From the NCBI GenBank assembly GCA_000961585.1, contig LADN01000069.1:1-64000 (forward strand): a stretch of 64,000 nt of DNA. The letters are read 5' to 3'. The notes under the pieces were generated by a model. The model had not been told where the DNA came from, did not search any database, and was given only the letters and a program-made list of their open reading frames with translations. The position numbers were made by a program, and so were the translations under genes. Position 1 is the first letter of the stretch; each line of letters begins with the position of its first letter. This document shows positions 31,688 through 49,108 of the stretch, piece by piece. The stretch is from Peptococcaceae bacterium BRH_c4a (GTDB lineage Bacteria; Bacillota; Desulfotomaculia; Desulfotomaculales; Desulfocucumaceae).

Positions 31688-32155
31688 GGAAAGTATATAC
31701 CATACTAAAGCATTAAAGTGCTAAATCGTCAAAGCATTTTTATATAGCCCAGAGTTTTTCCGGGGTCACTTGAGGGTCGCTGCATTGTCGCTAATGGGTA
31801 GGTGGAGCGATTTAAGTTCGGCCTGCATAACCTCCTGCTGCAACTGTCTCTAGACTCGGTCGCCAACGGAATGCCGACCATTTTGGAGGTGGGAGGCCAG
31901 AGGTTAGAGGTTAGAAAACTTGCAGGAAATGACCTCAGAGCCATTTCTAGCTTAATCCGATTTCCGACTTCCAACATCTAACCTCCAAATTCGTAGGCTC
32001 GGTCGTTAAGAGACAGTAGCAGCCTCCGGTACATTCCGCACGGACTTAAACCACTCCCCCTCACTGCATGTCACTGTGGGGTCTCTTGAGGGTCGCTTTT
32101 AAGGCAGGCTGTCACAATTCTGTCTCCTGAATTCTGAGTCCTGAGTTCTGTCCCA
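31688..32155 (+). ncRNA. repeat element copy A: candidate structured RNA / non-autonomous mobile element
   Basis: Non-coding element of about 470 nt seen four times in the window (A, B, C in plus orientation, D inverted). A is the longest plus-strand copy. Its core helix pairs GCTGCAACTGTCTCT (31838-31852) with AGAGACAGTAGCAGC (32010-32024), with one A-A mismatch. A variable arm lies inside it, and the 3' domain with CACTGCATGTC and TTGAGGGTCGCTTTTAAGG is nearly invariant. It ends in a 7-nt repeat tail (32117-32151) but, unlike B-D, no terminator. Not matched by me to a known RNA family. Confidence 0.7.
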
Positions 32156-35009: not shown

Positions 35010-35434
35010 CCCCCCTCATGCATGTCGCTTGAGGGTCGCTGCATTGTCGCTAATGGGTAGGCGGAGCGATTTAAGTCCGGCCTGCATTACCTCCTGCTGC
35101 AACTGTCTCTAAACTCGGTCGCCAACGGAATGCCGACCATTTTGGAGGTGGGAGGCCAGAGGTTAGAGGTTAGAAAACTTGCAGGAAATGACCTCAGAGC
35201 CATTTCTAGCTTAATCCGATTTCCGACTTCCAACATCTAACCTCCAAATTCGTAGGCTCGGTCGTTAAGAGACAGTAGCAGCCTCCGGTACATTCCGCAC
35301 GGACTTAAATCACTCCCCCTCACTGCATGTCGCTGTGGGGTCGCTTGAGGGTCGCTTTTAAGGCAGCCTGTCACCATTCTGGATTCTGGCTTCTGGATTC
35401 TGGATTCCCAAGCGCCCTTCAGGGCGTTTTTTTT
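35010..35434 (+). ncRNA. repeat element copy B with terminator
   Basis: From about 35030 to 35376 it is nearly identical to copy A (31770-32115), including the core helix, variable arm and 3' domain. The 5' end differs: an AGCC-type leader is missing and the start, CCCCCCTCATGCATGTCGC, resembles the 3' domain. The tail has ATTCTGG heptads (35374-35409) and then a terminator hairpin CGCCCT/AGGGCG with eight Ts (35413-35434). Element function unknown. Confidence 0.7.
35412..35434 (+). terminator. intrinsic terminator at the end of element B
   Basis: CGCCCTTCAGGGCG followed by eight T residues, just before the hpt promoter region. Confidence 0.88.
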
Positions 35435-38757: not shown

Positions 38758-39411
38758 TTAATATATTGAGTCCAGGGGGTTAATTCTTTGGGCCAGTGAA
38801 AAAAGATACGGGTAATTACCTTCTAAATAATTCATATATTTTATCCATTGGGAAATAAGGGAGGTGTATGCCCTGGACATATCTTCGGTCAGGTGATCAT
38901 GATCGGCTTCGGAAATATTGTTTAAATCCGGTCTGTATTCTAATTCTTCGGTCAGGTGGAAAACCGCCTGCAGAAGTTCGGTAAATGATTCATGTTCCAG
39001 CAAAGTGGGGTTTTCTAATAGTCTTAGCAGAAACTCCCTTTTATTAAACAGAAAATCGTTCAGCCCTTGCAGATCTCCTCTTCGGCTGTCCGGTTGGCTG
39101 CGGCCGGCCAGTTTATCCTCCTTGCTAAAGGTGGATAAGCATGTTATAAGATCGGTACCCGCTTCACTGAAAAAGGCCCCTATAACCATGTTCAGTTTTT
39201 CCCTCATGACTGTTTTTTCCCTATGGCTGATTACCTTGTGAATTATCATTGATACCAGTAATACCTCAATGGGAAGAAAGGCTATGTCTCCCATCAAGTA
39301 AATAAAAATATGCCGGGCATCTCTGAAAATTGCGTAGTGGGCCAGATAGAAAAGGGCGGAGACTAAAATCAGACAGATTCCCAGGATAATATACCAACTG
39401 TGGCGCTTCAT
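38758..39411 (-). CDS. conserved membrane protein of unknown function
   Basis: The 217 residues start KRHSWYIILGICLILVSALF with a first membrane helix (about 5-25) and a second at about 38-58 (IFIYLMGDIAFLPIEVLLVS), followed by a soluble helical domain. ATG 39411 has GGAGGTG upstream, which rules out the longer frame to 39465. I do not know the function. Divergent from the purine operon. Confidence 0.75.
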   Translation of the reverse strand: MKRHSWYIILGICLILVSALFYLAHYAIFRDARHIFIYLMGDIAFLPIEVLLVSMIIHKVISHREKTVMREKLNMVIGAFFSEAGTDLITCLSTFSKEDKLAGRSQPDSRRGDLQGLNDFLFNKREFLLRLLENPTLLEHESFTELLQAVFHLTEELEYRPDLNNISEADHDHLTEDMSRAYTSLISQWIKYMNYLEGNYPYLFSLAQRINPLDSIY

Positions 39412-39448
39412 AAGCTTCACCTCCGGATAAATGTTAAGCCATAAAATA

Positions 39449-39477
39449 TTGACACCTAATAACACTCTTGTTATGAT
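39449..39477 (+). promoter_or_regulatory. sigma-A promoter of the purine operon
   Basis: TTGACA (39449-39454), 17-nt spacer, TATGAT (39472-39477). The predicted start is about 10 nt before the riboswitch aptamer. Confidence 0.88.
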
Positions 39478-39495
39478 ACAATTGATTCAGAGAAA

Positions 39496-39701
39496 GTGTG
39501 CCTCAGGGTTCCGGCCCGCAGCTTACATGCGGGCGGCAAGGTCCGAGCGGCACAGGCTCCTTTAAAGCGCACGCCTGATCAGTGGAAGTACTTTAAAATC
39601 CGAGGCGTGTGTATAAAGGCGCAACACCGGTAGGGGTAAAAGCCCAGGCGGCAGGTTTCTCTTTTTAGAGTAAACCCGTATGTCCGGGCTTTTTGATTTT
39701 A
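39496..39701 (+). promoter_or_regulatory. ykkC-class riboswitch, most likely PRPP-sensing, with terminator
   Basis: The leader contains the ykkC core: CAGGGTTCCGG (from 39503), AAGGTCCGAGCGGCAC (39538-), then CAACACCGG and GGGGTAAAAGCCCAGGCGGCAG (39622-39654, given in parts). A long accessory stem (GCACGCCT/AGGCGTGT) lies between. Downstream, AGGTTT can pair with AAACCC, and CCCGTATGTCCGGG followed by TTTTTGATTTT (39675-39700) is an intrinsic terminator. ykkC subtype 2b riboswitches sense PRPP and control purine operons; position before purE favours that subtype over the guanidine or ppGpp ones. No tandem guanine aptamer is seen. Confidence 0.83.
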
Positions 39702-39768: not shown

Positions 39769-40287
39769 ATGGACAAAGCCTTGGTTGGAATAGTTATGGG
39801 CAGTGACTCGGACCTTCCTGTTATGAAAGAGGCGGCTGATATTCTGGATGATCTGGGGGTTGCTTGCGAAATAATCATTTCTTCCGCCCACCGTGCGCCG
39901 GATAAAACCGCAGAATACGCCCGCTCAGCCGCCGGCAGGGGGCTTCAGGCAATTATTGCCGGGGCCGGCGGGGCGGCCCACCTTCCAGGGGTGATTGCCT
40001 CCCTCACTACTTTGCCGGTTATCGGAGTACCCATAAAATCCGGCCCTTTAAACGGGGTGGACGCTCTTTACGCCATTGTCCAGATGCCGGCCGGAATACC
40101 GGTGGCCACCGTGGCCATAAACGGGGCTAAAAATGCCGGCATACTGGCGGCTCAGATTATAAGTTTGAAAGATGAAGCCGTCAGGCGCAGGTTTGAAAAG
40201 TACAAGTCCGGACTGGCCCGGCAGGTGGAGGAAAAGAACGCCCGCCTGGGGTCCCTGGGCGTCGAAAACTACCTGGCCGGGAAGTGA
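39769..40287 (+). CDS. purE: N5-carboxyaminoimidazole ribonucleotide mutase PurE
   Basis: Carboxylation step of IMP synthesis. The 172 residues contain GIVMGSDSDLPVMKEAADIL and ISSAHRAPDKTAEYA. Length and motifs fit the class I mutase, which needs PurK; no purK is in the operon. ATG with TTGGAGGA upstream. First gene of the pur operon. Confidence 0.96.
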   Translation: MDKALVGIVMGSDSDLPVMKEAADILDDLGVACEIIISSAHRAPDKTAEYARSAAGRGLQAIIAGAGGAAHLPGVIASLTTLPVIGVPIKSGPLNGVDALYAIVQMPAGIPVATVAINGAKNAGILAAQIISLKDEAVRRRFEKYKSGLARQVEEKNARLGSLGVENYLAGK

Positions 40288-40323: not shown

Positions 40324-41616
40324 ATGATTGAACGCTATACCCTGCCTGAGATGAAGAGAATCTGGTCCCAGGAAAACAAGTACAGGAAGTGGCTGGACGT
40401 TGAGATTTACGCCTGTGAGGCCATGGCCGAACTGGGGCTGGTACCGCCTGAGTCCTTGAAAATCATAAAGGAAAAGGCCGATTTTACCGTTGATCGGGTG
40501 GATGAGATTGAGGCTGTAACCAACCACGATGTAATCGCCTTTTTGACATGTGTTGCCGAGTACGTTGGGGAGGATTCCAAGTACATACACATGGGGCTGA
40601 CTTCATCGGACGTGCTGGATACCGCCCTGGCCGCCCAGATGAAAGAGGCCGGCGAGATGATCCTGTCCAGGCTTAGGGAACTGCGCCCGGTACTGTTGGA
40701 AAGGGCTGCGGAGCACAGGAACACTGTGATGATGGGAAGAACCCACGGAGTTCACGCCGAGCCCATCACCTTCGGTCTTAAGATGCTGCTTTGGGCCTCG
40801 GAGACCGACCGTAATATCGAGAGAATGGAGAGGGCGCTGGAGTCCGTAAGCGTGGGTAAAATATCGGGGGCCGTGGGCACATACGCCAATATTAACCCGG
40901 CCATTGAGGCTCACGTATGCCAAAGATTGGGTTTAAAGCCTGCCGCCATATCCACCCAGGTGGTGCAAAGGGACAGGCATGCCGAATTCCTTTCAACCAT
41001 GGCCATAATTGGAAGTTCCCTGGAGAAGTTTGCCACTGAAATCCGCAGCCTGCAGAGAACGGAGATATTGGAGGTCGAGGAGTATTTTGCCAAGGGTCAG
41101 AAGGGATCGTCCGCCATGCCGCACAAACGCAACCCTATAACAGCCGAGAGGATAACCGGAATGGCCCGCCTCCTTCGGGGGAATGCCCTGGTGGCCATGG
41201 AAAACGTGGCCCTCTGGAATGAGAGGGACATTTCCCACTCTTCGGTGGAGCGGATAATCCTGCCCGACAGCACCACTGCATTGGACTACATGCTTTACAA
41301 GTTTACCGCCATGATCAAAAACCTCCTGATTTACCCGGAAAACATGATCAAGAATTTGAATCTCACCGGCGGGCTGCTTTTCTCCCAGCGGGTGCTGCTA
41401 ACCCTGGTAAACAAGGGGCTGACCAGGGAAAGGGCCTATGATCTGGTGCAGAGAAACGCCATGGAGTCATGGAAGACCGGGAGTAATTTCCAGGAGCTGC
41501 TTCACCGGGACGCCGAGGTAGCCTCCATACTGAGCGCTGAAGAGATTGACGGGCTGTTTGACTATAGTTATCATCTGGGCAGAGTGGATGAAATATATCA
41601 AAGATTTGGACTGTAG
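40324..41616 (+). CDS. purB: adenylosuccinate lyase
   Basis: Cleaves SAICAR and adenylosuccinate. The 430 residues carry the fumarase-superfamily signature [27 protein letters not shown] and [14 protein letters not shown]. Full length, second gene of the operon. Confidence 0.97.
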
Positions 41617-41679
41617 AAAGAGTCTTTCACCAGGGATCCCATCTGTCAGTCAATATAAAATATACGGAGGAGATCGCCG

Positions 41680-42384
41680 ATGCTGAAGAAGGAAATGTTT
41701 TACGAAGGAAAGGCCAAGAGAGTTTATGTCACCGATGAACCCGGAAAATATCTGGTGGAATTTAAAAATGACGCCACCGCCTTTGACGGTAAAAAGAAAG
41801 GGACCATTGACAACAAGGGGATGCTGAACAATAAAATATCAGTCTTATTTTTTAAACTACTGGAGGAAAAGGGTATCAAAACCCACTTTATAGAGGCGGT
41901 GAGCGATACCGAGATGCTGGTCAGATCCCTGGAAATAATTCTGGTGGAAGTGGTGGTGCGCAATATCGCCGCCGGAAGCCTGGCCAAGAGGATAGGTATG
42001 GAGGAGGGAACAACCCTTCCGGCTCCGGTGGTGGAGTACTATTACAAAAGCGACGCACTGGGAGATCCTCTGATCAACAACTCTCACATTGCGGTGCTGG
42101 GATTGGCCACTCCGGAACAGATGGAGGTCATGAAGGAAACCGCCCTTAAAGTAAACGGCGTGCTGAAGGATTTTTTAACCGGTAAAAACATCGATCTGGT
42201 TGATTTTAAGCTGGAATTCGGCCGGCACGGAAACGAGATACTGCTGGGAGATGAAATTTCCCCGGATACCTGCAGGTTCTGGGACAGCCAAACCAGCGAG
42301 AAACTTGACAAGGACCGCTTCCGCAGGGATCTGGGCAACGTGGAGGGGGCTTACCGGGAGGTATTTAAAAGAATACAGGCGTAA
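41680..42384 (+). CDS. purC: SAICAR synthetase
   Basis: Joins CAIR and aspartate. The 234 residues show [40 protein letters not shown] and the [12 protein letters not shown] signature. ATG behind CGGAGGAG. The next gene is purF only 23 nt away, where many Firmicutes have purS-purQ-purL. Confidence 0.97.
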
Positions 42385-42407
42385 GCCGTCCAGTATGGGG
42401 GGAAGAC

Positions 42408-43862
42408 ATGAGAGCCAGCGGAGGGTTTTCTACGGTGAACATGCCGGAAAACAGAATAGAGAAACCAGACAAGCCCAGGGAAGAATGTGGAATTTTCGGG
42501 GTTTACGGTAAAAATATGGATGTGTCCAGAATTACCTATTACGGCCTGTACGCCCTCCAGCACAGGGGTCAGGAGAGCGCGGGCATAGCTGTTTCCGACG
42601 GTAAAAAGGTAATGCTGCACAAGGACATGGGACTTGTGCCCGAGGTGTTCAGCCAGGAACAGCTTGACAAGCTGAAGGGACACATAGCCATCGGGCATGT
42701 GCGCTATTCCACCACAGGTTCCAGCCATCCCATAAATGCCCAGCCCCTGGTGTTCAGATATGCCAAGGGGACCTTGGGTCTGGCTCACAATGGCAATATA
42801 ACCAATATATGGGATTTGCGCTCTCAACTGACATCTACCGGATCGGTGTTTCAGTCTACCACCGACAGCGAAGTTATTGTAAACCTGGTTGCCAGATACA
42901 GCCAGAACACCCTGGAAGAGGCCCTGGCCAAGTGCATGATTGACGTCAAGGGGGCCTACTCACTCTTACTAATAACAGAAACCAGCCTTATTGCGGTCAG
43001 GGACACCTATGGCTTCAGGCCTCTGAGCATTGGAAAATTGGGTGACGGGTATGTTGTGGCCTCGGAGTCCTGCGCCCTGGATACCGTGGGCGCCACCAAA
43101 CTGCGGGATGTCGGACCCGGGGAAATCATAATTATTAACGATAAGGGCATTAGGTCTATTAGGGCACTTTCCTCACGTAAAAAGGCCCACTGCATTTTTG
43201 AGTATATTTATTTCGCCCGTCCGGACAGCGAGATGGACGGCTTTCAGATCAGCCAGGTAAGAAGGGAAATGGGCCGGCAATTGGCCAGGGAGTATCCTGT
43301 GGATGTGGATATAGTCGTTGCCGTTCCGGATTCGGGGACCACGGCGGCCAGAGGCTATGCCGACGAATCCGGAATACCTTTTGAAGAGGGGTTGATGAAA
43401 AACCGGTATATAGGGCGCACCTTCATACAGCCCAGTCAGGATATGCGGGAGATGGGTGTAAGGCTGAAGCTCAACCCCATGAAACATGTGCTGGAGGGCA
43501 AAAGGGTGCTGATGGTGGATGATTCCCTGGTCAGAGGGACTACCAGCAGCAAGATTGTTAAAATGCTCAGGGACTGCGGGGCCAGGGAGGTTTACCTGTG
43601 CCTCAGTTCTCCCCCGGTGGTTAAATCCTGCCACTACGGTATAGACACCTCCAATGAAAGTGAGTTGGTGGCCGCCCAGAAGTCAGTGGAGCAGATTAAA
43701 AATCTCATTGGGGTAGACGGGCTGTACTACCTGAGCCTGGAAGGGCTGCTGAACATTTTCGCAAAGGACCGGGATAACTTTTGTACAGCCTGTTTCAACG
43801 GGGATTACCCGGTGGAGATAGCGAAACCTGGAAATTCCGGCAAATTTATGCTGGAATGGTAA
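42408..43862 (+). CDS. purF: amidophosphoribosyltransferase
   Basis: First committed step of purine synthesis, using PRPP and glutamine. The 484 residues have a 26-residue propeptide before the N-terminal nucleophile C27 (EECGIFGVYG). Cysteines for a [4Fe-4S] cluster, as in the Bacillus-type enzyme, are present in KAHCIFEY, KSCHYGID and FCTACFNGDYP. The PRPP loop is VLMVDDSLVRGTTSSK. Cluster assembly and propeptide cleavage are inferred from the family. Confidence 0.97.
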   Translation: MRASGGFSTVNMPENRIEKPDKPREECGIFGVYGKNMDVSRITYYGLYALQHRGQESAGIAVSDGKKVMLHKDMGLVPEVFSQEQLDKLKGHIAIGHVRYSTTGSSHPINAQPLVFRYAKGTLGLAHNGNITNIWDLRSQLTSTGSVFQSTTDSEVIVNLVARYSQNTLEEALAKCMIDVKGAYSLLLITETSLIAVRDTYGFRPLSIGKLGDGYVVASESCALDTVGATKLRDVGPGEIIIINDKGIRSIRALSSRKKAHCIFEYIYFARPDSEMDGFQISQVRREMGRQLAREYPVDVDIVVAVPDSGTTAARGYADESGIPFEEGLMKNRYIGRTFIQPSQDMREMGVRLKLNPMKHVLEGKRVLMVDDSLVRGTTSSKIVKMLRDCGAREVYLCLSSPPVVKSCHYGIDTSNESELVAAQKSVEQIKNLIGVDGLYYLSLEGLLNIFAKDRDNFCTACFNGDYPVEIAKPGNSGKFMLEW

Positions 43863-43889
43863 ATTATAATACTAAAGAGGGTATCACTG

Positions 43890-44933
43890 ATGGAAGGCAA
43901 TGAGAAACTGACTTACGCCTCGGCCGGGGTAAACATAGAAGCCGGTAACAAAGCCGTTGAACTGATCAGAAAATCTGTCAAAAGCACCTTTCGGTCGGGT
44001 GTTCTGACGGATATAGGCGGCTTCGGGGGGCTATTCGCCCTGGATCCCTCCCGTTACCTGGAGCCGGTGCTGGTTTCCGGAACCGATGGGGTGGGGACAA
44101 AGCTCCGGGTGGCCATTATGATGAACAGACACCATACCATCGGCATTGATGCAGTGGCCATGTGTGCCAACGACGTACTGGTACAGGGGGCCGAGCCTTT
44201 ATTTTTCCTGGACTATCTGGCCGTGGGCAGGCTTTTGCCCGAAAAGGCGGCCATGATCGTTGAGGGGGTGGCCGAGGGCTGCCGAAGGGCCGGATGTGCC
44301 CTCATCGGCGGGGAAACCGCCGAGATGCCGGGTTTTTATGGCGAAGATGAATATGATATCGCGGGATTCGTCGTTGGGGTAGTGGATAAATCGAAGATTA
44401 TAGACGGATCGGCCATAAGACCTGGTGACGTTATGCTGGGGATAACCTCCTCTGGCCTTCACAGCAACGGTTTTTCCCTTGTCCGCAAGACACTGTTCGA
44501 GATAGCCGGTTATGGTGTGGAAACACACATTGAAGAGTTAGGCCGCACGCTGGGAGAGGAATTGCTGGAACCCACCAGAATTTATGTGAGACAGGTTCTT
44601 CCTCTTTTGAACCGGTACTGTATAAAGGGCATGGCCCATATCACCGGCGGCGGTCTGACCGAAAACATCCCCCGGGTGCTGCCGGATGGTACTGCCGTGG
44701 TCATTGACAGGAAATCCTGGCAGGTTCCCCAGATATTTAACATTATCCAGAGACTGGGCAGGATAGACCATGGTGAAATGCTGAAAACATTCAACATGGG
44801 TATAGGACTGGTTATGTTTGTTTCAGGTGAGCAAGCCGGAGGGGTTATTGAGTACATCCGGGCTCAGGGCGGCGAGGCCCTGGTCATGGGAGAAGTGGTG
44901 GCATCCCCTGATAAATGTGTGACCTATAAGTAA
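43890..44933 (+). CDS. purM: AIR synthetase (phosphoribosylformylglycinamidine cyclo-ligase)
   Basis: ATP-dependent ring closure to AIR. The 347 residues contain [43 protein letters not shown] and [16 protein letters not shown]. Its substrate FGAM comes from PurSQL, which is not encoded in this window. Confidence 0.97.
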
Positions 44934-44950
44934 TATGAGGTGAGATACCG

Positions 44951-45583
44951 GTGAAAAAGCTTAGGGTGGGAGTTCTGGCTTCCGGAAGGGGCTCTAATCT
45001 GCAGTCCATCATAGACCACTGTGAAAGCGGGGCCATTCCTGCCATGGTGGCCGTGGCGGTCAGTGACAGGGGAGATGCCTTCGCCCTGGAAAGGGCCAGG
45101 AATCACGGTATACCAGCGGTGCATATTCATCCCCAGTATTACGCCGGCCAGGAGGAATATGAGAGCAGGATAGTCCTGGAAATGCAGGAATACGGGGTTG
45201 ATTTAATCTGCCTGGCGGGTTATATGCTATTGGTGGGAAAGGCGCTGCTGGAGGCGTTTCCGGGCCGGATAATGAACATACACCCGGCCCTGCTGCCTTC
45301 CTTTAAGGGGCTGCACGCCCAGGGGCAGGCCGTGGAATACGGGGTTCGATTCAGCGGCTGTACCGTTCACTTTGTGGATCAGGGCGTGGACACAGGCCCC
45401 ATAATACTTCAGGCAGTGGTGCCTGTGTACCCGGAAGATCTGGAAGATGACCTGTCCGCCAGGATATTGGAACAGGAGCATGTCATTTATCCAGAGGCGG
45501 TCAGGTTGTATGCCGAGGGTCGGTTAAGGGTTGACGGCAGGAAGGTTTATATCTTGCAGGATGGAAAAAGAACGATGAGGTGA
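44951..45583 (+). CDS. purN: glycinamide ribonucleotide formyltransferase PurN
   Basis: 10-formyl-THF-dependent formylation of GAR. The 210 residues contain [14 protein letters not shown], the signature [16 protein letters not shown] and the catalytic region [19 protein letters not shown] start. Stop overlaps the region before purH. Confidence 0.96.
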
Positions 45584-45591
45584 ACCGAGTT

Positions 45592-47130
45592 ATGGGTAAG
45601 AGAGCGATGATCAGCGTATCTGACAAGACTGGCGTGGTGGAGTTTGCGTCGGGCCTGATTAAAATGGGGTTTGAAGTGGTGTCCACCGGCGGAACGGCCA
45701 AAACATTGAGGGAAGCGGGTGTTCCGGTAACGTATATAACCAGAGTCACAGGATTTCCCGAAATACTGGATGGCCGGGTGAAGACGCTGCACCCGGCAGT
45801 TCACGGCGGGATACTGGCCAGGCGCACTGAAGATCATAAGGATCAACTGGAAAAGCAGGGGATAGGTTTTATCGACCTGGTGGCCGTCAATCTTTATCCC
45901 TTCAGGCAGACGGTGTCAAAGCCCGGTGTCACCCTGGAGGAGGCCATTGAGAATATTGATATAGGCGGACCGGCCATGGTGCGGGCGGCGGCTAAAAACC
46001 ACAGGTACGTGCTGGTGGTGGTAAACCCCGAAAGGTATGGAGACATTCTGAAGGCCCTGGAGGGCACAGAGGTGGACTATCAGTTCAGACTGGGTCTGGC
46101 CAGGGAGGCCTTCGCCCATACTGCGGTTTATGACACGGCCATAGCTTCATATCTGGAGGGGATAACCGGCGGAGCTGAACTATTCCCTGAGATATTGAGC
46201 AAACCCTTTAATCTGGCGCAGGTACTGAGGTACGGTGAAAACCCACACCAGAAAGCTGCCTTTTACAGGGATCCCGCATCGGTGGGGGCTTCGGTGGGAT
46301 CTGCCAGGCAGCTGTCGGGAAAGGAACTTTCCTATAACAATATACTGGATCTTAATGCAGCCCTGGAGTTAGTAAGGGAGTTTTCAGACCCGGCGGCTGT
46401 GGTAATAAAACATAACAATCCATGCGGCGCAGCCTGCGCGGAGAGCATAAGCCAGGCATACAGGCTGGCCTTTGAGGGCGATCCGGTTTCGGCCTTCGGA
46501 GGGATTGTGGCCTGCAACCGTGAAGTTAACGGGGACGCAGCCGGTCAGATGGCCGAAACATTCCTTGAGGCCGTTATAGCTCCTTCTTTTACCACAGAGG
46601 CACTGGAAATACTGGGTAAACGCTCCGGGCTGCGCATACTGGAGACCGGCAGCCTGGACGGGCAGTCAGGGGATATTCTTGATATCAGAAAGGTAAACGG
46701 AGGTCTTTTATTACAGGAGACTGACCGTAAACTGCTGGACCGGGACCGTATGGAGGCTGTGACAACTGTAAAGCCGGACCCGGCTGACCTGGAAGAGCTG
46801 GTATTTGCCATGACGGTGGTAAAGCATGTCAAATCAAACGCCATAGTGGTCACCAGGAACCGCCAGCTTATAGGTGTGGGGGCCGGACAGATGAACCGGG
46901 TGGGGTCGGCCGGAATAGCCCTGAACCAGGCCGGAGATCGCGCCAGGGGAGCTTACCTGGCCTCGGACGCCTTCTTCCCCTTTGCTGATACCGTGGAGCT
47001 GGCCGCCGGGGCAGGGATCAAGGCCATTATACAGCCGGGTGGCTCTGTCAGGGATGAGGAGTCGGTAAAGGCTTCGGAAAAGCACGGTATAATAATGGTG
47101 ACAACCGGGTTCAGGCATTTTAAACACTAG
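45592..47130 (+). CDS. purH: bifunctional AICAR transformylase / IMP cyclohydrolase
   Basis: Last two steps to IMP. The 512 residues begin [18 protein letters not shown] (cyclohydrolase domain) and continue with the transformylase domain ([13 protein letters not shown], the KLR-type region, and the end [19 protein letters not shown]). ATG 45592 is chosen because GAGGTG lies 10 nt upstream; GTG 45580 overlapping purN is an alternative. Confidence 0.97.
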
Positions 47131-47253
47131 GAGGCTGTTGAAAAAGTCCATCTGCGGCGTTGCGGCGGCGGCTTCAATGCTCAACGTACAAGGAGTACGC
47201 CTCCGCTTGAAGCCTTGCCGCGCCTTGCATCTGGAGCTTTTTGAACAGCCTCC
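47130..47253. mobile_element. long inverted-repeat element (MITE/REP-like) between purH and purD
   Basis: A 124-nt imperfect hairpin beginning at the purH stop. Outer arms are GGAGGCTGTTGAAAAAG and CTTTTTGAACAGCCTCC (one mismatch); inner arms include GGCTTCAA/TTGAAGCC around GTACAAGGAGTAC. No ORF. It separates purD from the rest of the operon. Confidence 0.78.
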
Positions 47254-47367
47254 GGTTGTAGTCGAATAAGTACTTTGTTGACCTCTTAATATAGTTTTGC
47301 AACACTCTCCTAGGGACGGTAATTATGGGTTTGGTTAGGTTATTGGTTATTGCGGAGGTTTAATTAC

Positions 47368-48669
47368 ATGAAAATTCTGGTGGTGGGCGGCGGGGGGCGG
47401 GAGCATGTCCTTTGCTGGAAGCTTAAACAAAGCCCCCGGGTGTCAAAAATATACTGCGCTCCGGGAAACGCAGGAATTGCCGGAGTCGCGGAATGTGTCA
47501 ACATTGAGGTCTCGGATATAAAGGGACTGGTGGATTTCGCCCTGCGGCAAAAAACAGACCTCACCGTGGTGGGGCCGGAGGACCCCCTCAACAGGGGTCT
47601 GGTGGACGCTATGGAGGAACAGGGGCTGAGGGTATTCGGACCCAGGGCCTCTGCCGCGGCACTGGAAGGAAGCAAGGCGCTGGCCAAGGGCATAATGGCC
47701 AAATATGGCATTCCCACTGCGTCTTATGCCTCCTTTGAAAGCCTGTCAGAGGCCGAGGAACATATAAGACAGTTAAAGTCTCCCTGCGTGGTTAAGGCCG
47801 ACGGCCTGGCCGCCGGCAAGGGGGTAATAGTGGCCATGACCGAGGAAGAGGCCCTGGGCGCCGTCAGGCAGATAATGGGCCAAAGGGCCTTCGGCAGTGC
47901 CGGGGACCGGGTGGTGGTGGAAGAAATGCTTATTGGTGAGGAATTAAGCGTTCTGGCCTTCACCGACGGGGAAACTGTCATTCCCATGATGCCGGCCCAG
48001 GATCACAAGCAGGTTTATGACGGGGACAGGGGGCCCAACACCGGGGGCATGGGAGCCTACGCCCCGGCCCCTGTATGCACCGGGGAAATATACAGTTTTG
48101 TTCTGGAAAAGGTGCTGTATCCAGTGGTAAAGGCCATGGCCGCCGAGGGAAGACCTTATAAGGGGGTTATTTACGCCGGAATGATGATAACCGACCAGGG
48201 TCCCAAGGTGCTGGAATTCAATACCCGCTTCGGAGATCCCGAGGCACAGCCGGTTCTGATGATGCTGAAAACCGACCTGGTGGATATAATGGAGTCTGTA
48301 ATAGACGGCAGGCTAAAGGAAATTAAGGTGGAATGGCAAAAGGGATCCTCGGTGTGTGTGGTCATGGCCTCCGGGGGATACCCCGGAGAATACACAAAAG
48401 GCATGGAGATACACGGCCTTGAGGATGTTCCCCAGGGGGTAACAGTATTTCATTCCGGCACAGCCTTGAAGGACGGCAAAACGGTGACCTCCGGCGGAAG
48501 GGTGCTGGGAGTGACAGCCGCCGGGGAGGATATTCCCACTGCCATAGCTATGGCATACAGGGGAGTGAAGGCCATCAGCTTTGAGGGGATGCAATACCGC
48601 AGGGATATAGGACAGAAAGCGGTAGGGCGGGGGCGTTGCCGGCTAAGGAAAGGGGACACACCTCTCTAA
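47368..48669 (+). CDS. purD: phosphoribosylamine-glycine ligase
   Basis: Makes GAR from phosphoribosylamine. The 433-residue ATP-grasp enzyme contains VVGGGGREHVLCWKL, VKADGLAAGKGVIVA and the signature RFGDPEAQPVL. Homologues end close to RRDIGxRA; here the protein continues about 18 residues (VGRGRCRLRKGDTPL end) into an inverted-repeat sequence. ATG 47368 is behind GCGGAGG. The distance from purH suggests it may also be transcribed separately. Confidence 0.95.
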   Translation: MKILVVGGGGREHVLCWKLKQSPRVSKIYCAPGNAGIAGVAECVNIEVSDIKGLVDFALRQKTDLTVVGPEDPLNRGLVDAMEEQGLRVFGPRASAAALEGSKALAKGIMAKYGIPTASYASFESLSEAEEHIRQLKSPCVVKADGLAAGKGVIVAMTEEEALGAVRQIMGQRAFGSAGDRVVVEEMLIGEELSVLAFTDGETVIPMMPAQDHKQVYDGDRGPNTGGMGAYAPAPVCTGEIYSFVLEKVLYPVVKAMAAEGRPYKGVIYAGMMITDQGPKVLEFNTRFGDPEAQPVLMMLKTDLVDIMESVIDGRLKEIKVEWQKGSSVCVVMASGGYPGEYTKGMEIHGLEDVPQGVTVFHSGTALKDGKTVTSGGRVLGVTAAGEDIPTAIAMAYRGVKAISFEGMQYRRDIGQKAVGRGRCRLRKGDTPL

Positions 48670-48702
48670 CGTGACTGCCTCTGGGGGTCGGAGGAATGTC
48701 CC
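48652..48702. repeat. inverted repeat across the purD stop
   Basis: GGGGACA (48652-48658) and TGTCCCC (48696-48702) flank the end of purD. This looks like a short inserted repeat that supplied the present stop codon. Confidence 0.5.
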
Positions 48703-48740
48703 CGATGCTTAGACGGTGGAATACAGGAGACAAAATAATG

Positions 48741-49108
48741 TATACTTATCCTCCGGCTGCAACTGTCTCTAGACTCGGTCGCCAACGGAATGCCGACCAT
48801 TTTGGAGGTGGGAGGCCAGAGGTTAGAGGTTAGAAAACTTGTAGGAAACGACCTCAGAGCCATTTCTAGCTTAATCCGACTTCCAACTTCCAACATCTAA
48901 CCTCCAAATTCGTAGGCTCGGTCGCCAAGAGACAGTAGCAGCCTCCGGTACATTCCGCACGGACTTAAATCACTCCCCCTCACTGCATGTCGCTGTGGGG
49001 TCGCTTGAGGGTCGCTTTTAAAGTATGCTATCACCATTCTGGATTCTGGCTCCTGGCTTCTGGATTCCGCCGTCTGCAAGACGGCAACGCCCGTTAGGGC
49101 GTTTTTTT
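48741..49108 (+). ncRNA. repeat element copy C with terminator
   Basis: 5'-truncated copy beginning CTTATCCTCCGGCTGC, a form shared with copy D. Core helix GGCTGCAACTGTCTCT / AGAGACAGTAGCAGCC. The variable arm is close to A and B but with separate point changes. The invariant 3' domain is followed by 7-nt repeats (49034-49068), a CCGTCTGCAAGACGG hairpin and a terminator. The minus strand of this arm, as in copy A, yields a spurious ORF. Confidence 0.7.
49086..49108. terminator. bidirectional terminator at the end of element C
   Basis: ACGCCCGTTAGGGCGT followed by Ts on the plus strand. It also lies 3' of the convergent glucosaminidase gene on the minus strand, though without a strong T-run in that direction. 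Confidence 0.8.

What the first reader, a model, noticed from the sequence alone, without database searches (positions are those of the whole stretch)
39496..39701. PRPP-type (ykkC subtype 2b) riboswitch ahead of purE
The leader has the ykkC core (CAGGGTTCCGG, GGTCCGAG, GGGGTAAAAGCCC), an unusually long accessory stem, and a terminator with a plausible antiterminator. Association with purEBCFMNHD fits PRPP sensing, and purF uses PRPP. The tandem guanine aptamer found in some species is absent.
Basis: partly seen in the sequence, partly recalled or inferred. Interest (0 to 1): 0.72.

Follow-up and report, generated by a model that had tools for sequence, protein, structure and literature searches.

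The report
PRPP riboswitch before purine operon
The leader of this bacterium's purine-synthesis operon carries an RNA switch of a known kind that probably turns the operon on when the precursor PRPP piles up; it is an ordinary new example that standard annotation misses because one of its stems is unusually long.

Summary
The leader at 39489-39694 contains a complete ykkC-fold aptamer (RF00442, 40.6 bits, E 4.9e-6, but below the gathering score of 63), a strong promoter upstream, and an overlapping terminator. Eight pur genes follow (purE-B-C-F-M-N-H-D). It is the only ykkC RNA found in the genome, and no purine (guanine/adenine) aptamer was found.

I built three models from relatives sorted by downstream gene. 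The leader scores 88.1 bits with the 2b (PRPP) model, 43.4 with the ilvE-linked 2a (ppGpp) model and 15.2 with the guanidine-I model. The published diagnostic bases are present: C at position 49, G at position 96, a P0 helix, A5/G6 and A103-G104-G105. The aptamer's P3 and P0 3' strands lie in the terminator's 5' arm, so ligand binding should permit readthrough (an ON switch).

The long P2 stem is a length variant: it ranges from about 14 to 174 nt among relatives. In two same-genus genomes a dispersed REP-like palindrome lies inside P2. Binding of PRPP was not and cannot be tested here. Verdict: new member of a known kind, low novelty.

The parts
39449..39477 (+). sigma-70-type promoter: TTGACA, 17 nt, TATGAT (11 of 12); transcription start inferred near 39484
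   Evidence: the same promoter arrangement stands at the same place in relatives L103, L104 and L105
39489..39495 (+). P0 5' strand (AGAGAAA; 39495 = A5 of the crystal structure, 39496 = G6)
   Evidence: aptamer-only minimum-energy fold pairs 39489-39495 with 39656-39662; base roles from PMC6031431
39497..39554 (+). P1 (39497-39502 with 39549-39554), enclosing P1a/P1b with the conserved AGGGTTCC and GGTCCGAG; G48 = 39547, C49 = 39548
   Evidence: P1 pairs in 423 of 426 cells over 71 distinct class members, with positions varying and mostly still paired
39556..39622 (+). P2, the long accessory stem (2 + 6 + 10 pairs and a large apical loop)
   Evidence: folds at -26.8 kcal/mol; not repeated elsewhere in the genome
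39625..39647 (+). P3 region: C75 = 39625, C77 = 39627, GGG 39634-39636 with CCC 39643-39645, G96 = 39647
   Evidence: cmscan alignment, class alignments
39653..39662 (+). A103-G104-G105 (39653-39655) and P0 3' strand (39656-39662)
   Evidence: base roles from PMC6031431
39638..39694 (+). intrinsic terminator (hairpin 39638-39693, T run 39690-39694); its 5' arm contains the 3' strands of P3 and P0
   Evidence: -26.2 kcal/mol alone; 63 of 71 class members predict the same overlap
39769..40287 (+). purE, first gene of the controlled operon
   Evidence: TIGR01162, 207.2 bits over cut-off 149.6
40324..48669 (+). purB, purC, purF, purM, purN, purH, purD, downstream genes of the operon
   Evidence: each above its NCBIfam cut-off

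Best explanation
It is a single (not tandem) PRPP riboswitch, ykkC subtype 2b, that controls the purEBCFMNHD operon by transcription termination. When PRPP is low, the 3' strands of P3 and P0 are taken up by the terminator hairpin at 39638-39693 and transcription stops before purE. When PRPP accumulates (purine demand not met by PurF), it binds the pocket made by P3, P0, G48/C49 and G96, holds those strands in the aptamer, and RNA polymerase reads through. Shown by computation: aptamer, promoter, terminator, overlap of the two folds, class assignment, gene context. Inferred: PRPP as ligand and the ON direction, both by homology to tested members. The long P2 is inferred to be a peripheral extension without an essential role.
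For: RF00442 match over the full model. Three-class contest: 88.1 (2b), 43.4 (2a), 15.2 bits (I), with the window's family held out of training. Pyrimidine at position 49 and G at 96, where the ilvE-linked 2a set has A at 96 and the efflux-linked guanidine-I set has A at the 46/49 position, as published (PMC6031431). P0 pairing and the four-way-junction fold appear in the unconstrained aptamer fold. Terminator-containing fold -86.0 against aptamer-forced fold -77.3 kcal/mol, so OFF is the default without ligand. Operon identity. The same RNA stands before purE in dozens of related loci, including same-genus and same-family genomes. Direction and ligand of tested members: PMC5912903.
Against: Score below the Rfam gathering cut-off. 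Four family-level departures from the wider 2b consensus: an extra base between P1 and P1a (CCTCAGGG), G for A in the P3 loop (GGGGTAAAAG), a linker one base shorter (AGGCGGCAGG), and the long P2. The first three recur in close relatives, and the extra base and short linker also in other 2b members, so they do not look like decay. No binding or expression data. The RNAalifold structure used for model R1 does not reproduce the known aptamer fold, so R1 works mainly as a sequence profile.
Confidence: 0.93

Rival explanations
1. A ppGpp riboswitch (ykkC subtype 2a) that happens to lie before purE.
For: 2a and 2b share nearly the whole consensus and both fit the window (43.4 bits with the 2a model). 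The window's linker is one base shorter than in most purE-linked members, and 2a members sometimes lack a base in this region.
Against: G96 is present; all 13 ilvE-linked 2a sequences have A there. The 2b score is 44.7 bits higher. The short linker also occurs in 2b members before purE, purine permeases and BMP nucleoside-binding genes.
Confidence: 0.03
2. A guanidine-I riboswitch.
For: The only Rfam family matched carries that name.
Against: C, not A, at the marker position. 15.2 bits with a guanidine-I model built from efflux-linked relatives, E 0.023. A purine operon is downstream, not an efflux pump.
Confidence: 0.01
3. A ykkC-fold aptamer whose specificity has drifted in this family to another ligand (for example another nucleotide precursor), helped by the altered linker and P3 loop.
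For: The three core departures co-occur in window, L103, L104 and L105.
Against: The ligand-contacting bases that could be mapped are conserved (the weakly conserved A101 falls in the shortened linker), and the downstream genes are unchanged.
Confidence: 0.03

Closest known systems
PRPP riboswitch, ykkC subtype 2b (Sherlock et al. 2018, PMC5912903; structure PMC6031431), singlet form as before purB of Heliobacterium modesticaldum
   Same: Aptamer fold with P0, C49, G96, A5/G6, A103-G105; transcription terminator overlapping P3/P0; purine operon downstream; no guanine aptamer.
   Different: P2 of 67 nt, one extra base between P1 and P1a, G in the P3 loop, linker one base shorter than in most purE-linked relatives.
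ppGpp riboswitch, ykkC subtype 2a
   Same: Same fold, P0 tails and pyrimidine at 49.
   Different: 2a relatives have A at 96 and sit before ilvE (branched-chain aminotransferase).
Guanidine-I riboswitch, RF00442
   Same: Same scaffold; the only Rfam model that matches.
   Different: A at the 49-equivalent, no conserved P0 tails, efflux genes downstream.

Membership tests
ykkC-fold RNA (RF00442) | significant covariance-model match over the full model | tested here: met
   40.6 bits, E 4.9e-6, model 1-107; below the gathering score 63, probably because of the P2 insert and class differences (inference)
PRPP riboswitch (2b) | pyrimidine at position 49 (A in guanidine-I) | tested here: met
   C at 39548
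PRPP riboswitch (2b) | G at position 96 (over 97% in 2b, not G in 2a) | tested here: met
   G at 39647, aligned to C75 at 39625
PRPP riboswitch (2b) | P0 helix formed by the two tails, with A5, G6, A103, G104, G105 | tested here: met
   39489-39495 pairs with 39656-39662; bases at 39495, 39496, 39653-39655
PRPP riboswitch (2b) | scores better as 2b than as 2a or guanidine-I | tested here: met
   88.1 against 43.4 and 15.2 bits
PRPP riboswitch (2b) | purine-synthesis genes downstream | tested here: met
   purEBCFMNHD
PRPP riboswitch (2b) | expression platform in which the aptamer's P3/P0 competes with a terminator (ON switch) | tested here: met
   mutually exclusive folds share 39638-39662; the ON direction is inferred
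PRPP riboswitch (2b) | selective PRPP binding | not testable with these tools
   needs in-line probing, dialysis or a termination assay
ppGpp riboswitch (2a) | position 96 not G | tested here: not met
   G at 39647
guanidine-I riboswitch | A at the position equivalent to 49 | tested here: not met
   C at 39548
tandem guanine-PRPP riboswitch | guanine aptamer next to the PRPP aptamer | tested here: not met
   no purine aptamer in the leader or genome

The most novel reading that the evidence does not exclude
In this family the extended P2 stem has become a landing site for dispersed palindromic elements and may have gained a second role (folding timing or a second input), so that the switch is a modified PRPP sensor rather than a plain one.
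Probability: 0.05. Interest if true: 0.45.

Novelty: new member of a known kind. Interest (0 to 1): 0.18.

Why it matters
It proposes the control of this operon and shows that default Rfam scans miss PRPP riboswitches with long P2 stems: this one lies 22 bits under the cut-off, and two same-genus genomes with clear copies (L104, L105) gave no match at all in the family search. The comparison also lists purine permease, BMP-type nucleoside-binding and probable adenine deaminase genes behind the same RNA in related Firmicutes; the words permease and adenine deaminase do not occur in the main text of the founding paper.

Tried and rejected
Default Rfam scan: nothing. Weak hits STnc260, mir-4889 and WT1-AS_7 rejected as chance: all far below their gathering scores, two of them on the other strand and two from eukaryote families. 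The idea that the short linker makes this a ppGpp switch was rejected after reading the downstream genes and position 96 in relatives. The idea that the window's P2 is a mobile repeat was rejected: unique in the genome apart from a 19-base chance match. The long P2 of a Pelotomaculum relative is also not repeated in its genome.

Full report
What is there. The purE leader contains, in order, a promoter (TTGACA, 17 nt, TATGAT; 39449-39477), an aptamer (39489-39662) and a terminator (39638-39694), followed by purE at 39769. Rfam RF00442 matches 39491-39652 over its full length with 40.6 bits, E 4.9e-6. It is the only match in the 3.5 Mb genome. It lies under the gathering score, so the default scan is empty. 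Folded alone and without constraints, the aptamer sequence takes the architecture published for the PRPP aptamer: P0 (39489-39495 with 39656-39662), P1, P1a/P1b, P2 and P3 around a four-way junction (PMC6031431).

Which ligand class. ykkC RNAs fall into guanidine-I, 2a (ppGpp), 2b (PRPP) and the unsolved 2c and 2d (PMC5912903). I collected relatives from 80 genomes of the same order or nearer and from a pattern scan of named genomes, and sorted them by downstream gene. Those before efflux genes that look like the SMR family (read from sequence, not scanned) carry A at the marker position. Those before ilvE (aminotransferase class IV) carry A at position 96. Those before purE, purK, Xan_ur_permease or BMP genes carry G96. 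The purK label was also read from sequence. The pattern itself required AGGCGG, so G96 is built into loci L032-L087; the loci were found without that condition and show the same split. The window has C49 and G96.

Three covariance models were built from 24, 13 and 10 sequences with no member of the window's own family. The one exception is that guanidine-I row L006 comes from a genome of that family, which cannot favour the 2b result. The window scored 88.1 (2b), 43.4 (2a) and 15.2 bits (guanidine-I). A 2a sequence outside the training set, L093, was placed correctly (85.6 against 114.1), as were the 2b sequences outside it with long P2, for example L057 (104.4, 66.9, 23.8) and L103 (90.8, 62.9, 21.8). 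Two RNAs of another type (L100, L101; a NUDIX gene confirmed behind L101) score modestly with every model and resemble the orphan 2c type. For L104 and L105, whose P2 is interrupted, all models score low (32 bits or less) and do not decide the class. Caveat: the automatic structure of R1 is not the true aptamer fold, so R1 acts largely as a sequence profile.

Is the structure real. Over 71 distinct class members P1 pairs in 423 of 426 cells. Three of its six positions vary, and nearly all variants stay paired, by changes such as T-A to C-G and G-C to A-T. In 63 of the 71 the predicted fold downstream pairs the 3' strand of P3 with a later stretch, and 46 of these have at least four U in a row close behind.

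How it works. The terminator takes up 39638-39662, which includes the 3' strands of P3 (39643-39645) and P0. For the window leader the terminator-containing fold is -86.0 and the aptamer-forced fold -77.3 kcal/mol. Without ligand the operon should therefore be off; ligand binding during transcription should hold P3 and P0 and allow readthrough. For a homologous singlet this has been shown in vitro (T50 40-90 uM) and in B. subtilis (PMC5912903). For this sequence it is inferred. All eight downstream pur proteins pass their NCBIfam cut-offs. No purine aptamer was found in the genome, so the tandem logic gate is absent.

What is unusual. P2 is 67 nt long here; the stretch between P1 and the CACC motif ranges from about 14 to 174 nt among relatives. 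Within the same genus, L104 and L105 carry in P2 a palindrome (GGGGACATTCCT ... GTGTCCCC) that has dozens of relatives in those genomes (54 and 42 matches counted; not every candidate was scored, so the counts are rough) and 27 in the window's genome, one of them at 48646-48706. This suggests that the tip of P2 tolerates insertions. The window's own P2 is not repeated. Window, L103, L104 and L105 also share an extra base between P1 and P1a, G in the P3 loop and a shorter linker. Because the P3 loop docks into P1a in the crystal structure, the first two might be coupled; L038 has the extra base with the ordinary loop, so the coupling is not strict.

Verdict. Observation confirmed, interpretation supported, PRPP binding untested. 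An ordinary new member of the PRPP riboswitch class with a long P2.

Noticed in passing
window 31841-32102, 35100-35361, 48760-49021: A dispersed, apparently non-coding repeat of about 260-300 nt with about 40 long copies (92-98% identical) in this genome, three of them in the window; two flank the stretch from hpt-guaA to purD. Nature unknown.
   Followed up: partly
window 48646-48706: REP-like palindrome (GGGGACA...TGTCCCC) overlapping the last codons of purD (stop at 48667-48669); the PurD family match ends at residue 425 of 439, so the last residues may come from the repeat.
   Followed up: partly
L104 (leader at about 1149-1399), L105 (minus strand, about 2296-2584): The same palindrome family sits inside the P2 stem of the purE PRPP riboswitch in two same-genus genomes; in L105 P2 has grown to about 174 nt.
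   Followed up: partly
L106 (about 1268-1408): A same-family genome of 1.6 Mb has a strongly altered purE riboswitch: the CACC of the pocket is not recognisable and the terminator arm is changed. It may be decaying or respecialised.
   Followed up: no
L011, L013, L017, L024, L027, L077, L079, L087, L139, L140: 2b-type RNAs before purine permeases (PF00860), BMP/PnrA-type nucleoside-binding proteins (PF02608) and probable adenine deaminase (read from sequence): an uptake and salvage regulon beside the synthesis genes.
   Followed up: partly
L100 (384-515), L101 (1115-1247, minus): ykkC RNAs resembling the orphan 2c type; L101 lies before a NUDIX gene, ligand unknown.
   Followed up: no
window 38758-39465 (minus): A 235-residue membrane-like protein divergent from purE with no Pfam match.
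   Followed up: no
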